Shown: one piece after another, positions 4,407-9,898 of the stretch | Position numbering within the stretch: position 1 is the first letter of the stretch | Layout of the letters: each line of letters opens with the position of its first letter | From: Sulfurivirga caldicuralii | Lineage (GTDB): Bacteria; Pseudomonadota; Gammaproteobacteria; Thiomicrospirales; Thiomicrospiraceae | Assembly: GCF_900141795.1 (NCBI RefSeq) | Contig: NZ_FSRE01000003.1 | Span: forward strand, 310,001-374,000 | Length of the DNA: 64,000 bases | Direction: 5' to 3' | The notes under the pieces: model-generated | Databases searched by the model: none | What the model saw: the letters and a program-made list of their open reading frames with translations, nothing else | Told to the model about the DNA's origin: nothing | Made by a program: the position numbers and the translations under genes

Positions 4407-5222
4407 TCAGAACTCGCGCCGCAAAAGCTGCGCCAGCACCCAGCCATCACGCTTGTCCAGCTGATGGCCTGCCGACACCGGAATGGTCATGGCGCGCCCA
4501 CTCAGTGCGGGCACCCGTCGCAGATCCTGATACTTGGGCGGCACCATCATCCCCACCCAGTCATCCATGCGTCGCCCACCCCATTTGCGCATATGCACGA
4601 GACTGATGTATTTCACCCCTTCCGGATGGCGCATGTAAGCCATGCGGTGGATGGTGTTGCCGCGCTTGTCGGAGGCCAGCTCCCACAGCAGGTAGCGGGC
4701 GGCGTAGAGCCGCTCGGACTTGTCGTCCATCTCCTTGAGCATGCGCCCCATGGGAGAACGCAACATCTGCCAGCCCAGTTTTGCCCACGGCGTGCCCAGA
4801 TTGGGCGACGCAATGGTAATCACGCCCGCCACCGGTACACGCCATTTTTCCGGTGCCAGCGAATAGAGCCGCGCCACGATACCGCCGCTGGAGTGGCCGA
4901 CGAGAATCACAGGCTCCTTGCGCAGCGCATAAATGCGCCGCAACACCTGATCCAGATAGCGCGCCTGCGCTTCCAACGGCAGCCACCAGGGCATGCGCAC
5001 GGTATAAACCACATCCGGTGCCTTCTGCGCCGCCCAATTGGGCAGCATTGGCAACATGCCGCCATCTGCCCAGCCACTGGCCAGCAGCGGCTGAATGACC
5101 TTGTGCTTGTACCACGCATCCGGATTGCTCACCATGCCGTAAATCAGCACCGCCGTGCGCGCCCACGCACTGCCCGCAAGCAGCGAAACCAGCAGAATAA
5201 CCAGCAGCGTTGCACGTTTCAT
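4407..5222 (-). CDS. Secreted alpha/beta-hydrolase (lipase/esterase-like)
   Basis: This 271-residue exported hydrolase has a signal peptide (LLVILLVSLLAGSAWA) and a nucleophile elbow GHSSGG typical of lipases and esterases. A downstream histidine in SAGHQLDK is the likely catalytic base. The start was placed at 5222 because GAGGAGG lies just upstream; an in-frame codon 11 positions earlier lacks such a site. The substrate is unknown. It is transcribed alone, converging on the fcc operon and diverging from an outer-membrane protein gene. Confidence 0.8.
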   Translation of the reverse strand: MKRATLLVILLVSLLAGSAWARTAVLIYGMVSNPDAWYKHKVIQPLLASGWADGGMLPMLPNWAAQKAPDVVYTVRMPWWLPLEAQARYLDQVLRRIYALRKEPVILVGHSSGGIVARLYSLAPEKWRVPVAGVITIASPNLGTPWAKLGWQMLRSPMGRMLKEMDDKSERLYAARYLLWELASDKRGNTIHRMAYMRHPEGVKYISLVHMRKWGGRRMDDWVGMMVPPKYQDLRRVPALSGRAMTIPVSAGHQLDKRDGWVLAQLLRREF

Positions 5223-5397
5223 CACCCCCCTCCTCTGGTGGGGCATCCCGCACAATCTATCCCGAATGGTCGCAATGGGACGGGTTTGGCGCGGATGCCA
5301 TTGATATGATTGTAAAAAGGCCTATTTTTTGAGGCAAATGCTTGAGTTTTCGCTTATATAAGTGCCCCGCTGCGAGGATGTGAAAAAAATCGATTTC

Positions 5398-5417
5398 AAA
5401 AAGTCGGGGACCCCCCC
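5398..5417 (+). repeat. Dispersed GTCGGGGAC element, copy 1
   Basis: The core is A5 followed by GTCGGGGAC and a run of C. Weaker similarity extends upstream (GTGAAAAAAATCGATTTC). It lies in the 255-base gap between the divergent hydrolase and outer-membrane protein genes, in the sense direction of the latter, 60 bases before its start codon. The rest of the gap is A/T-rich and has only a weak Fur-like half site (CATTATCA) at the start codon. Confidence 0.85.
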
Positions 5418-5477
5418 TTACTCATCGGGAAAATCCCATTAGAATGCTTTCACCCAATACAAATGTGAACCATTATC

Positions 5478-6476
5478 ATGAGTAAGCACTCCCTTTCCTA
5501 TTTCTTTCTGATCTGGCTAGTCACAGTTAGCGCAACTGCTGCTGCACCCGCCGAAGTCAGCGGTAATCTGATGTGGACGCATCAGCGTTCCGATCTGGGA
5601 GCCGTTAAACCGGAAAACACCCTCTCCGGCGATTTCCTCGCCGAAGGACACTGGAAACAAATTGGCTGGCTGGTGCACCTGGAAGGCAACAACACCCCAG
5701 ACGCACGCGGCCCCAGTGCACTGGGTGCCCAGGCAGCAGCCGGTGTCGCCACCGACAAGGACGGCGAGGGCCGCATCCAGCTTTCCGAAGCCTTTGCCAG
5801 CTTCGGCATGTTAAACGGCCAACTCCACATTGGGCTGATCGATCTGGCCGGTTTTGCCGATACCTCTGACGTCGCCAATGACGAAACCACCCAGTTCCTC
5901 AATGCCGATCTGGTAAACAACAGCACCATTTCATTTCCGGATCACGACCTGGGCCTTGCCTGGACATCAGCGCGCCTCAATATTCTCTTGGCAAAAAACA
6001 CTGGCCTTGCTGATAACGGCAGCGACTATCACCGTCTCTTTTCTCTCACCAACCATCGCACTGGCATTTTTACCTTAGCTGAAACCCACTGGCTGAATGA
6101 ATCCCTGCATATCGGCGCATGGTATAGAGAAGGTGCAGAGGACGAAAAAGACAGCTGGGGAACCTATCTCACCACCGATCAATCACTGGGCGGGCTGGAC
6201 TGGAACCTGCGCCTGGGGTGGGCCGATGACACGGCCCAGGATGCGGCACGCTTCGCCAGCCTCGCTGCGCAAAAAAGCTGGAACCGCTGGACCCTTGGCC
6301 TTGGTCATGCCACCACACTGGGCAGCGGCCCGCTCAATGCGCCAGATCGCCATATGAGCGAAGGCTATCTGCGCTACCGTATCAATGCCCACTGGGATAT
6401 CAGCGCCGATGTGCAATTTATCCGCCAACAGACGGATACATGGGTCTATGGTGCCCGGGCACTGTGGCACTTTTAA
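5478..6476 (+). CDS. Outer-membrane beta-barrel protein (porin-like)
   Basis: A 332-residue protein with a signal peptide (cleavage near SATAAAPA) and alternating hydrophobic/polar strands throughout. It ends in an aromatic strand, GARALWHF, with terminal phenylalanine, the usual outer-membrane insertion signal. The final strands resemble carbohydrate-selective (OprB-type) porins, but the specificity is not known. The next reading frame, a degenerate cation-efflux gene, begins within 20 bases. Given the metal genes downstream, a role in metal acquisition is possible but unproven. A Fur-like half site overlaps the start region. Confidence 0.75.
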   Translation: MSKHSLSYFFLIWLVTVSATAAAPAEVSGNLMWTHQRSDLGAVKPENTLSGDFLAEGHWKQIGWLVHLEGNNTPDARGPSALGAQAAAGVATDKDGEGRIQLSEAFASFGMLNGQLHIGLIDLAGFADTSDVANDETTQFLNADLVNNSTISFPDHDLGLAWTSARLNILLAKNTGLADNGSDYHRLFSLTNHRTGIFTLAETHWLNESLHIGAWYREGAEDEKDSWGTYLTTDQSLGGLDWNLRLGWADDTAQDAARFASLAAQKSWNRWTLGLGHATTLGSGPLNAPDRHMSEGYLRYRINAHWDISADVQFIRQQTDTWVYGARALWHF

Positions 6477-6491
6477 GACGGGAGATCGTGC

Positions 6492-6863
6492 CTGAGCGAT
6501 TGCGGATGCGAAGTTGAAATCAAGGACGCCAGCCAGAAGAAAACCCTCCACTGGCTGTTGGGCATCAATGCCACCCTGTTCCTGCTGGAGATTATCGTCG
6601 GCTGGCTGGCCCAGTCCACAGCGCTCATCGCCGACTCGCTGGATACGCGCTGGCCGGATCTGATCATTGGACTCATTATCGCCGCCGTGGTCCTGCGCGG
6701 TGCCCGGCGCATTCTGGACGATGCGCGCAAGGAAGAAGCCATACTTTCCGGAGGCTGCAACGACAGCTGTAGCAGCAGACACAACAGCCAGAAAGGCGAA
6801 GCGGAAACCCCCAGCAGCGGTGGCGATGCCTGCACCACGACATGTTCGGCGGGACGTGAATAA
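6492..6863 (+). pseudogene. CDF cation-efflux transporter with large internal deletion
   Basis: The frame begins LSDCGCEVEIKDASQKKTL and runs through the first helix (WLLGINATLFLLEIIVGWL) to IADSLD, the start of the CDF metal-binding region. It then jumps directly at about 6645 to TRWPDLIIGLIIAAVVLRG, which in full-length family members is the last transmembrane region. About 120 residues in between appear to be missing, in frame. No ATG is available at the expected start: CTG stands where ATG would be (6492), and the only other in-frame starts are internal, such as TTG at 6558. A Cys/His-containing tail (GGCNDSC...DACTTTC) remains. It is most likely a pseudogene; a short two-helix product cannot be ruled out. 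Confidence 0.8.
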
Positions 6864-6914: not shown

Positions 6915-7655
6915 TCAGGAAGACCGCAAGGGAATCAGACGACTTGCCAGCGCCACCGCCACGATACACCAGACGATCAGTGGCGCTGCAGGCAGGTCAT
7001 ACAGGCTGGAGAGCACCAGCCCCAAGGCATAGGCCATCACAGCGATGGCATAGCCCATGCCTGCCGCTCGCCACCCATGCAGATGGCGCACGGCAATCGC
7101 CGGCACAATCAGTGTCGCAAACACCAGATAGACCCCCAGCAACTGCACGGAAGCAGTCACCGCCAGTGCGAAGGCAATATAGAATGCCGCCCGCCCCAGC
7201 CAGCGCTGTGCGAACAGCAGCAGGCCCACAGCAACTGTCACACCAGCCAGCGGTATTAACTGATCCCACAGGGTCCACAGGATCTGCCCGCTGAGCAGGT
7301 CCCGCATGTGTTCACCCCCATGGGGGTTATTGGCCAGCAATAGCAGGCTGGCTGTCGATGCCAGCACAAAGGTGACACCGATCAGCGCTTCCTGAATAGC
7401 TGGCCAGTAGCGCTCACACAGCAGCAGCCATCCCGCACCGATCAGGGCGGCTGCACCTGCCGCAGCCTGCGCCTGAAAAGGTTGGTCCCAGTGCAACAGC
7501 TGCGCCATCAGATAGCCCAGCGCGGCAATCTGCGCCACGGCCAGATCCATGAAGATCACGCCGCGAGCGAGCACTTCCCGCCCCAGGGGCACATGGGTCA
7601 GCGCCACCAGCGCACCCGCCACAAAGGGCGGGAGCAACAGTCCCCAATCGAACAT
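6915..7655 (-). CDS. znuB: Metal ABC transporter permease (ZnuB-like, ABC-3 family)
   Basis: The 246-residue membrane protein has about eight helices and the ABC-3 family layout (FVAGALVALTHVPLGREVLARG near the N terminus). It would form the channel of a zinc- or manganese-type uptake system. Its ATG overlaps the stop of the binding-protein gene (TAATG), so translation is coupled. No ATPase gene is found anywhere in the window, so the energising subunit must come from elsewhere if the system works. The metal cannot be told from sequence; the symbol denotes the family. Confidence 0.85.
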   Translation of the reverse strand: MFDWGLLLPPFVAGALVALTHVPLGREVLARGVIFMDLAVAQIAALGYLMAQLLHWDQPFQAQAAAGAAALIGAGWLLLCERYWPAIQEALIGVTFVLASTASLLLLANNPHGGEHMRDLLSGQILWTLWDQLIPLAGVTVAVGLLLFAQRWLGRAAFYIAFALAVTASVQLLGVYLVFATLIVPAIAVRHLHGWRAAGMGYAIAVMAYALGLVLSSLYDLPAAPLIVWCIVAVALASRLIPLRSS

Positions 7656-8566
7656 TATGGTGTACCCACACCGGCGGCCTTGCGCAGGCGCGCCAGGGTG
7701 TCGTCAAACAGGGTAAACAGGTCCTTAGCTTGCGGTGTACCGCCCACGGTAAACGGCAGCACGACAGCCGGTGTGCCGGTTTTGGCCGACAGCCACTCGG
7801 ACGGTTTCGGATCCTGGTAGGGGGCACGGATAATCGCCCTGGCCGGCTTCACCTTCAGCAGCGCAACCAGTTTCTGCAGGTGTGCACTGGACGGCGGAAT
7901 GCCTGGCTTGGGCTCAAGCGTGGCAACCTCATTGAGCTGCAGCCAGTGAACAAGATAAGTCCAGCCCTTGTGATGGGTGACGATCGGCATGCCCTTCAGC
8001 GGCGCACCCAGGGCATTCCAGTGCTGCATGGCCTGCTGCCAACGGGTGGAGAAGGCCGCCCAGCGGACACGGTAATGGGCCGCGTGCTCGGGATCTATCT
8101 CCATCAAGCGTTGTGCCAGCGCCTGACCCACACGATAGATATTGCGTGGGTCCGTCTGAATGTGCGGATTGCCCTGTGGATGCACATCCCCTTCTGAGCG
8201 ATCCAGCCGCTGCGGCCGTTCAAGCAGTGGCACATGGGCCGCGGCTTCGAAATAGCCGGGCTGTCCCGGCAGCACTTTCGGGTTGGCACCGCGACGCAAC
8301 AGGACAGGCAGCCAGCCCACTTCCAAGTCCGCACCTGTGCATACCACCATGTCTGCACGATGTATTTTGGCGATCAGGCTGGGGCGCGCCTGAATGTGGT
8401 GCGGGTCCTGCAATGCGCTGGTAGCGACAAACACCTCTGCTGCATCGCCCGCCAGCTCACGCGTCAGCGCGCCCCATTCCGGTTCGCAAGCGAACACATT
8501 CAACTTGGCGTAAGCAGGCGCCTGAACCACCAACCAGGCCAATACAACCAATACAAACTTTTTCAT
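7655..8566 (-). CDS. znuA: Metal ABC transporter substrate-binding protein (ZnuA-like)
   Basis: This exported 303-residue protein belongs to the cluster A-I metal-binding proteins. The likely metal histidines are in DPHHIQ, GNPHIQTDP and VTHHKGW, and the family acidic site would be near AIIRAPYQDPKPSEWL. The usual His/Asp-rich zinc loop is short here (RSEGDVHPQGNPH). The ATG at 8566 was chosen over a GTG nine bases upstream because GAGGAG is correctly spaced. It lies 12 bases after the porin gene and overlaps the permease gene, so the three are one operon. Confidence 0.88.
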   Translation of the reverse strand: MKKFVLVVLAWLVVQAPAYAKLNVFACEPEWGALTRELAGDAAEVFVATSALQDPHHIQARPSLIAKIHRADMVVCTGADLEVGWLPVLLRRGANPKVLPGQPGYFEAAAHVPLLERPQRLDRSEGDVHPQGNPHIQTDPRNIYRVGQALAQRLMEIDPEHAAHYRVRWAAFSTRWQQAMQHWNALGAPLKGMPIVTHHKGWTYLVHWLQLNEVATLEPKPGIPPSSAHLQKLVALLKVKPARAIIRAPYQDPKPSEWLSAKTGTPAVVLPFTVGGTPQAKDLFTLFDDTLARLRKAAGVGTP

Positions 8567-8578
8567 GACCTTCACTCC

Positions 8579-9898
8579 TCAATAGCTGTGCGCGCCATGG
8601 GCACCCAGGCTCATGGTGTATTGCAGATACACCTGATCATCCGCCTTCCCACTGGATTCGTCGCGGTTGAACTGCAGGCGCACGCGGCTGAACTCGCTGT
8701 TGCTGTAATCCAGCATCACGCTGCTGCGACGGGGTGTTTTACCTTCCGCATCCAGCGCCGTTCCCTGCAATGCTGTCGGCACCTTATCCGGCGTCAACTC
8801 ATCGTAGCGGGCGCCGACACGCCAGCGCGGCATGAACTGATAGACGGCCTGCGCATACCAGCCCTTGCGGTGCAGATCGACCTTGCCCAGGCCATCATAG
8901 GTGCCCTTTTCGTTGTCCCAGAAATACTCCGCCTGCAGCTTTAAGTTGCGCACGGTGGTATTGCCATTGGGCGCCCACTTCCACACAAAATCCACTACAT
9001 TGACGCTGTTTTCGCCGGTAAAGATCAGATCATCCGTTTCGCGTTCCTTGGCGTCCCCATGAAGATGACCAAGTCCCAGCTGCCAGCTGGAACTCAGGCC
9101 CACATCACCGCCCAGCTTGGCAAACAGGGTATAGGTGCCCTGCCCGTCGTGGGCTGCTCCGGCGACGGGATAGCTGTCGCCGCGGAACACTTCGCCGCCG
9201 ATCAGCAGATAGGTGTCGGTGGGTGCCAGCCAGGTCAGCTGTACCCCATCATCCGCATACTGGCCCGCGAAGAAGGCGCGATAAACCAGCGGCTCATCCA
9301 CGAAGTCCCACACATGGCTGTGCTGGCTGTTGAGATAGCCGATGCCCGACTTGAAACGACCGAACTTGCCGGTCAACCCTGCCGGCAATGCCAGGGTCTG
9401 AATATAGGCCTCTTCCAACTCCACCTCGTTTTCCGGCGTCAGCGCAGCAGTAAGCTGACCGTAGAACCAGTTATCCACCGTAGCGGACAAGGTCAGCTCA
9501 GATTCACCCAACGAAAAACCCCGGCTGCCAGGGCCCACTTCTTCATCCCCCAGCACAAACCCCGCCAGGCGATAGTCTTCCGGATCCTTGCTCAGATTGG
9601 CATAGGTGCCTGTCAGAACGGCACTGATGGCCGGATTGAAACCGTTCGCTCGCGTAGTATCTCCAGCGGGTGCAGGCGTCACAGGTGCGGCAGCCACAGC
9701 AGCCTTGGATTGGGCGGCCGCCTGCTTTTTCAATGTTTCAATCTGCTGCTGCATGGCCTGCAGCTGCGCTTGATAAGTCTGCTGCAACTGCTTGAGCTGG
9801 GCTTCCAGCTGCTGCAGGCGCTGCTGTTCAGTCGTGTCAGCTGCATGGGCACTGGTGGCCAAGGCCAATGCCACAGCCAGATAATGTTTTTTAAACAT
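8579..9898 (-). CDS. Outer-membrane porin with N-terminal coiled coil, metal-uptake operon
   Basis: The 439-residue protein has a signal peptide (ALATSAHA), a Gln-rich coiled coil (about residues 24-62, QQLEAQLKQLQQTYQAQLQ), then a beta-barrel. The coiled coil recalls trimeric porins that anchor to the periplasm. The C-terminal end has a short His tail (GAHGAHSY), unusual for a porin and suggestive of metal contact. It lies directly upstream of the binding protein gene, consistent with bringing metal across the outer membrane (inference). Confidence 0.8.
   Translation of the reverse strand: MFKKHYLAVALALATSAHAADTTEQQRLQQLEAQLKQLQQTYQAQLQAMQQQIETLKKQAAAQSKAAVAAAPVTPAPAGDTTRANGFNPAISAVLTGTYANLSKDPEDYRLAGFVLGDEEVGPGSRGFSLGESELTLSATVDNWFYGQLTAALTPENEVELEEAYIQTLALPAGLTGKFGRFKSGIGYLNSQHSHVWDFVDEPLVYRAFFAGQYADDGVQLTWLAPTDTYLLIGGEVFRGDSYPVAGAAHDGQGTYTLFAKLGGDVGLSSSWQLGLGHLHGDAKERETDDLIFTGENSVNVVDFVWKWAPNGNTTVRNLKLQAEYFWDNEKGTYDGLGKVDLHRKGWYAQAVYQFMPRWRVGARYDELTPDKVPTALQGTALDAEGKTPRRSSVMLDYSNSEFSRVRLQFNRDESSGKADDQVYLQYTMSLGAHGAHSY

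What the first reader, a model, noticed from the sequence alone, without database searches (positions are those of the whole stretch)
6492..6863. CDF efflux gene reduced to its first and last helices
An in-frame loss of about 120 residues joins IADSLD to TRWPDL, leaving a two-helix protein with a Cys-rich tail and no ATG. It sits next to a metal uptake operon, so efflux may have been lost or moved.
Basis: partly seen in the sequence, partly recalled or inferred. Interest (0 to 1): 0.5.

Follow-up and report, generated by a model that had tools for sequence, protein, structure and literature searches.

The report
Broken metal-exporter gene, middle deleted
A bacterial gene for a small metal-export pump has recently lost its start codon and its middle 345 bases, leaving a probably dead remnant, while the cell still carries other intact metal exporters: an ordinary decayed gene.

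Summary
Window 6492-6863 (+) is one open frame holding the first 51 residues and the last part of a short (about 200-residue) cation diffusion facilitator (CDF) transporter. Against 35 distinct intact homologues exactly 115 codons (345 nt) are missing between ADSLD and TRWPDL. All 35 have the same spacing. The first codon is CTG, where 34 of 35 homologues begin with ATG. The deletion removes helices 2-5. By alignment only the first of four transport-site positions stays.

No other short form turned up: 66 of 369 class genomes, 12 of 62 order genomes and 19 plasmid records hold a match. Only one other frame is short by damage, a frameshifted copy. The retained halves show no faster change than intact relatives, so the loss looks recent.

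The Cys-rich tail is not a new feature: 10 of 35 intact relatives have one. Efflux as such is not shown lost: the genome keeps two intact CDF genes and a cadmium/zinc-type P-type ATPase. The neighbouring znuA and znuB are real, but the complete znuABC lies elsewhere. Best reading: a recent pseudogene. Interest is low.

The parts
6492..6644 (+). retained 5' part: N-terminal CGC motif, helix 1 and the first residues of helix 2 (to ADSLD), 51 codons starting with CTG
   Evidence: 75% identical over residues 1-51 to the intact gene in L037
6645..6863 (+). retained 3' part: loop TRWPDL, helix 6 and Cys-rich tail, with stop
6639..6650 (+). deletion junction CTGGAT|ACGCGC; 115 codons absent relative to all 35 homologues read; LD codons occur at the right edge in 13 of the 35
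6480..6494 (+). GGGAG Shine-Dalgarno-like stretch and CTG in the place of the start codon
5478..6476 (+). outer-membrane-like protein gene, 15 nt upstream on the same strand; probably the same transcript
   Evidence: no Pfam match at E 0.1
6915..7655 (-). znuB-like ABC permease gene (PF00950), convergent neighbour
7655..8575 (-). znuA-like binding protein gene (PF01297)

Best explanation
The stretch is a recent pseudogene of a short, tail-bearing CDF metal exporter that lacks the usual C-terminal domain. A single in-frame deletion of 345 nt, probably by replication slippage between two short repeats coding Leu-Asp (one at the start of helix 2, one in the loop before helix 6), removed helices 2-5. 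The start codon also changed from ATG to CTG. The product, if made at all from CTG, would be a two-helix hairpin with both ends in the cytoplasm, keeping one of four transport-site positions and unable to carry metal. Shown: the exact gap, the missing start, the absence of other short forms in the genomes searched, the intact state of homologues and the presence of other exporter genes. Inferred: the slippage mechanism, recency, loss of expression and loss of function.
For: The gap is exactly 115 codons against 35 of 35 distinct intact homologues. Start codons are ATG in 34 of 35; in the remaining one (L053) my script placed the start at a GGC and a Val codon lies three codons on, at VSGCGC; the window has CTG. 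Right-edge residues are LD in 13 of 35 homologues; identical bases before the two edges reach 5-8 nt in 5 of 35, but the same-genus intact gene (L031/L006) has 0 contiguous (TTGGAT against CTGGAC). In a profile alignment to ZnT8 (6xpe), residues D51 and D55 of the family fall on the HxxxD pair of helix 2, and F/D of IFSAND on the HxxxD of helix 5; the window keeps only D51. The transport site of the E. coli CDF YiiP is D45/D49 of TM2 and H153/D157 of TM5 (passages read in PMC4995437). The window protein misses both family cut-offs (PF01545 19.9 of 26.6 bits, TIGR01297 29 of 82.35), while intact relatives pass Pfam in 3 of 3 and TIGR01297 in 2 of 3. No other genome searched has the short form. 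Two intact CDF genes and a P-type ATPase gene are in the same genome.
Against: The remaining frame is fully open for 124 codons and keeps the sequence expected of a constrained gene: 25 of 26 columns conserved at 85% or more match, and its mean non-synonymous difference to relatives (0.309) is below the mean of the intact ones (0.325). This fits a recent loss, but also a short form still in use. GGGAG is still well placed before CTG, and CTG can start translation weakly (general knowledge). The deletion is in frame and leaves a topology that could insert in the membrane. No second strain of the species was available, so an error of this one assembly cannot be excluded.
Confidence: 0.85

Rival explanations
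1. A functional two-helix microprotein: translated from CTG, the hairpin places its Cys-rich ends in the cytoplasm and binds metal, or pairs with the remaining CDF dimers and dampens them.
For: Open frame, constrained-looking sequence, Shine-Dalgarno-like GGGAG before CTG, plausible N-in/C-in hairpin, six Cys; a faint resemblance to FeoB-associated Cys-rich membrane proteins (PF12669, E 0.015, below its cut-off).
Against: No other short form in 369 class, 62 order or 57 relatives' genomes, nor over 80% of the query in 19 plasmid records; no normal start codon; the Cys-rich tail is inherited from the intact family.
Confidence: 0.06
2. An assembly or sequencing artefact: the genome really holds the intact gene.
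For: No second genome of the species was available for comparison; the retained parts look fully constrained.
Against: Two separate lesions (CTG for ATG, and a clean 345-nt in-frame gap) lie in a 390,849-base contig of a 7-contig, 99.99% complete genome; the missing middle is not found elsewhere in the genome.
Confidence: 0.07
3. A regulatory or coupling leader: the remnant is kept only as a transcribed tail of the outer-membrane gene upstream.
For: It lies 15 nt after that gene on the same strand.
Against: In the one relative where I saw both (G007), the upstream gene's homologue is followed by other genes before an ATG-started CDF gene that runs off the contig. No terminator was found at the remnant.
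Confidence: 0.02

Closest known systems
Short CDF cation transporters (about 200 aa, PF01545, TIGR01297), annotated 'cation transporter' or 'cation efflux protein' on Alteromonas and Glaciecola plasmids
   Same: N-terminal CGC motif, helix 1, helix 6, optional Cys-rich tail; up to 75% identity over the first 51 residues
   Different: The window lacks helices 2-5, three of four transport-site positions and the ATG
E. coli YiiP and human ZnT8 (solved CDF structures)
   Same: The family profile aligns to ZnT8 over the six-helix part (E 2.9e-7)
   Different: The window keeps two helices only; its intact relatives, at about 200 residues, are too short for the C-terminal cytoplasmic domain
FeoB-associated Cys-rich membrane protein (PF12669)
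   Same: Short membrane helix followed by a Cys-bearing tail
   Different: 15.9 bits against a cut-off of 27; clear descent from a CDF gene
Frameshifted relative in G327 contig C63
   Same: Another damaged gene of the same family
   Different: Broken into two overlapping frames, not by an in-frame deletion

Membership tests
CDF transporters (PF01545 / TIGR01297) | profile score over the curated cut-off | tested here: not met
   19.9 of 26.6 and 29 of 82.35 bits; intact relatives 3 of 3 over the Pfam cut-off and 2 of 3 over TIGR01297
CDF transporters (PF01545 / TIGR01297) | six transmembrane helices | tested here: not met
   two hydrophobic stretches and two predicted helices; alignment lacks helices 2-5
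CDF transporters (PF01545 / TIGR01297) | transport site on helices 2 and 5 | tested here: not met
   by alignment only D51 of four positions remains (site definition from passages of PMC4995437)
CDF transporters (PF01545 / TIGR01297) | descent from the family (homology of the retained parts) | tested here: met
CDF transporters (PF01545 / TIGR01297) | metal transport | not testable with these tools
   needs an assay
FeoB-associated Cys-rich membrane protein (PF12669) | profile score over the curated cut-off | tested here: not met
   15.9 of 27 bits
Pseudogene | loss of essential parts relative to intact homologues | tested here: met
   start codon and 115 codons lost
Pseudogene | relaxed constraint in the remnant | tested here: inconclusive
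   no acceleration seen; fits a recent event
Pseudogene | no functional product | not testable with these tools
   needs expression data
Conserved microprotein | short form kept in other genomes | tested here: not met

The most novel reading that the evidence does not exclude
A CDF exporter gene has been turned in one step into a two-helix, Cys-tailed membrane microprotein, weakly translated from CTG, that binds metal at the inner membrane face or dampens the two remaining CDF dimers.
Probability: 0.05. Interest if true: 0.6.

Novelty: new member of a known kind. Interest (0 to 1): 0.12.

Why it matters
Mainly as an annotation caution: the frame should be marked as a CDF pseudogene, not as a small Cys-rich membrane protein, and the genome should not be scored as lacking metal efflux. 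It is a clean example of an in-frame deletion between the two Leu-Asp positions of a CDF protein. If the short form were made, it would be an unusual birth of a microprotein from a transporter.

Tried and rejected
Short form conserved elsewhere: rejected, none found; the one other short frame (G327, 105 aa) is a frameshifted copy, and the 39-aa frame in G007 runs into the end of its contig.

The missing middle moved elsewhere: searched with the 115-residue middle of the same-genus intact gene; only a weak match to another CDF gene.

Matches of L038 and L039 over query 1-87 looked like short forms at first; their reading frames are full length, 197 and 210 residues.

A sequence search of the intact same-genus protein against solved structures found nothing at E 0.01; the alignment profile did. 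Rfam found nothing in the window. Promoter and terminator scans gave nothing useful at the remnant. Paper searches on CTG starts and on microhomology deletions found no paper; on CDF pseudogenes and truncated CDFs I saw only the listings and nothing there that describes such a remnant; one search was seen as a listing only, and one search returned only PMC4995437.

My first script read loci on the wrong strand for minus-strand matches; those rows were discarded and redone.

Full report
WHAT IS THERE. Window 6492-6863 (+) reads as 123 residues and a stop. It begins with CTG, 15 nt after the stop of an outer-membrane-like gene (5478-6476); GGGAG at 6480-6484 stands in front of it. The only ATG/GTG/TTG codons in frame after the upstream stop are TTG 6558 and GTG 6687, each inside a helix; the GTG at 6488 is in another frame and stops after nine codons. 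Residues 1-51 end in IADSLD and run straight into TRWPDL; the junction follows base 6644.

RELATIVES. I read 37 homologous loci in full: L005-L009, the four, and L044-L071. Two proteins are duplicates (L045 equals L038, L046 equals L039), leaving 35. Other matches were seen only as table rows. All 35 are full-length short CDF proteins or carry one. In all 35 the distance between the two junction points is 115 residues, without exception. So the window lacks 345 nt, in frame. Start codons are ATG in 34 of 35; in the exception (L053) my script placed the start at a GGC, and a Val codon lies three codons on. In 13 of 35 homologues the right edge, like the left, reads LD; identical bases before the edges reach 5-8 nt in 5 of 35 and are 0 contiguous in the same-genus gene L006/L031. 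Slippage between two LD-coding repeats is therefore likely but inferred.

WHAT WAS LOST. Helices 2-5 are missing. A profile of the family aligns to the six-helix part of ZnT8. In that alignment D51 and D55 of the family lie on the HxxxD of helix 2, and the F and D of IFSAND on the HxxxD of helix 5. The window keeps D51 alone. In E. coli YiiP the transport site is D45/D49 of TM2 and H153/D157 of TM5 (passages read in PMC4995437). A two-helix hairpin remains by hydropathy and in a low-confidence model (mean pLDDT 58.8). In a CDF both ends are cytoplasmic, and the fused loop was periplasmic on both sides, so the hairpin could still insert (general knowledge of CDF topology, inference).

IS IT CONSERVED? 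In 57 relatives' genomes (9 with matches at E 0.001, the own genome included in the table), 369 class genomes (66 with matches at E 1e-6, the own included) and 62 order genomes (12 with matches, the own included), no other listed frame joins the two halves. In one search every listed frame other than the own (128) and G327 (105) is at least 198 residues; G327 is frameshifted into two overlapping frames. In one search the only other short frame is a 39-residue one cut by a contig end (G007). In the plasmid collection 19 records match and none covers 80% of the query. These genome sets overlap.

AGE AND CONSTRAINT. Over 84 retained columns the window differs from a residue conserved in at least 85% of relatives at 1 of 26 columns; intact sequences differ at 0-3. 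Mean non-synonymous difference to the others is 0.309, against 0.325 (sd 0.022) for the intact ones; its terminal branch (0.335) is mid-range. The remnant has hardly decayed. A recent loss explains this; a short form still in use is not excluded by it.

THE CYS-RICH TAIL. 10 of 35 intact relatives have two or more Cys in the tail, among them the same-genus gene (L006, three). The N-terminal CxC is in 32 of 35. The tail is inherited.

THE REST OF THE GENOME. Two intact CDF genes (C5:100083, C4:26029; frames) and a cadmium/zinc-type P-type ATPase gene (TIGR01512, over its cut-off with neighbouring stretches) remain. Their substrates were not tested. The neighbouring znuA and znuB genes are real, with a porin-like gene beside them, and I saw no ABC ATPase gene among the ORFs listed to 14 kb (read by eye). 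A complete znuA-znuC-znuB set lies at C5:6-9 kb (the znuC match is 296 bits, below the curated 306; znuA and znuB there were recognised by eye).

VERDICT. A recent pseudogene of a short CDF exporter (0.85). A functional microprotein is the boldest open reading (0.05).

Noticed in passing
window 6915-9898 (-): A three-gene set porin, znuA, znuB without a visible ATPase gene. The same set recurs in other genomes of the class (L094-L100), and in L106 no ABC ATPase gene was seen among the listed ORFs around it. It may borrow the ATPase of the complete znuABC elsewhere.
   Followed up: partly
L032 7245-9075 (G001, same genus): In a same-genus genome a CDF gene with an N-terminal extension lies beside the homologue of the window's hydrolase gene 4407-5255, close to groEL; the roughly 7 kb stretch of the window with the znu genes and the CDF remnant is not between them there.
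   Followed up: partly
L072 4759-5345 (G327): A second damaged gene of the same CDF family, split by a frameshift.
   Followed up: no
window 5360-5437: Pieces of this stretch recur at 17 further places in the genome at 81-100% identity over 23-57 bases, like a small dispersed repeat.
   Followed up: no
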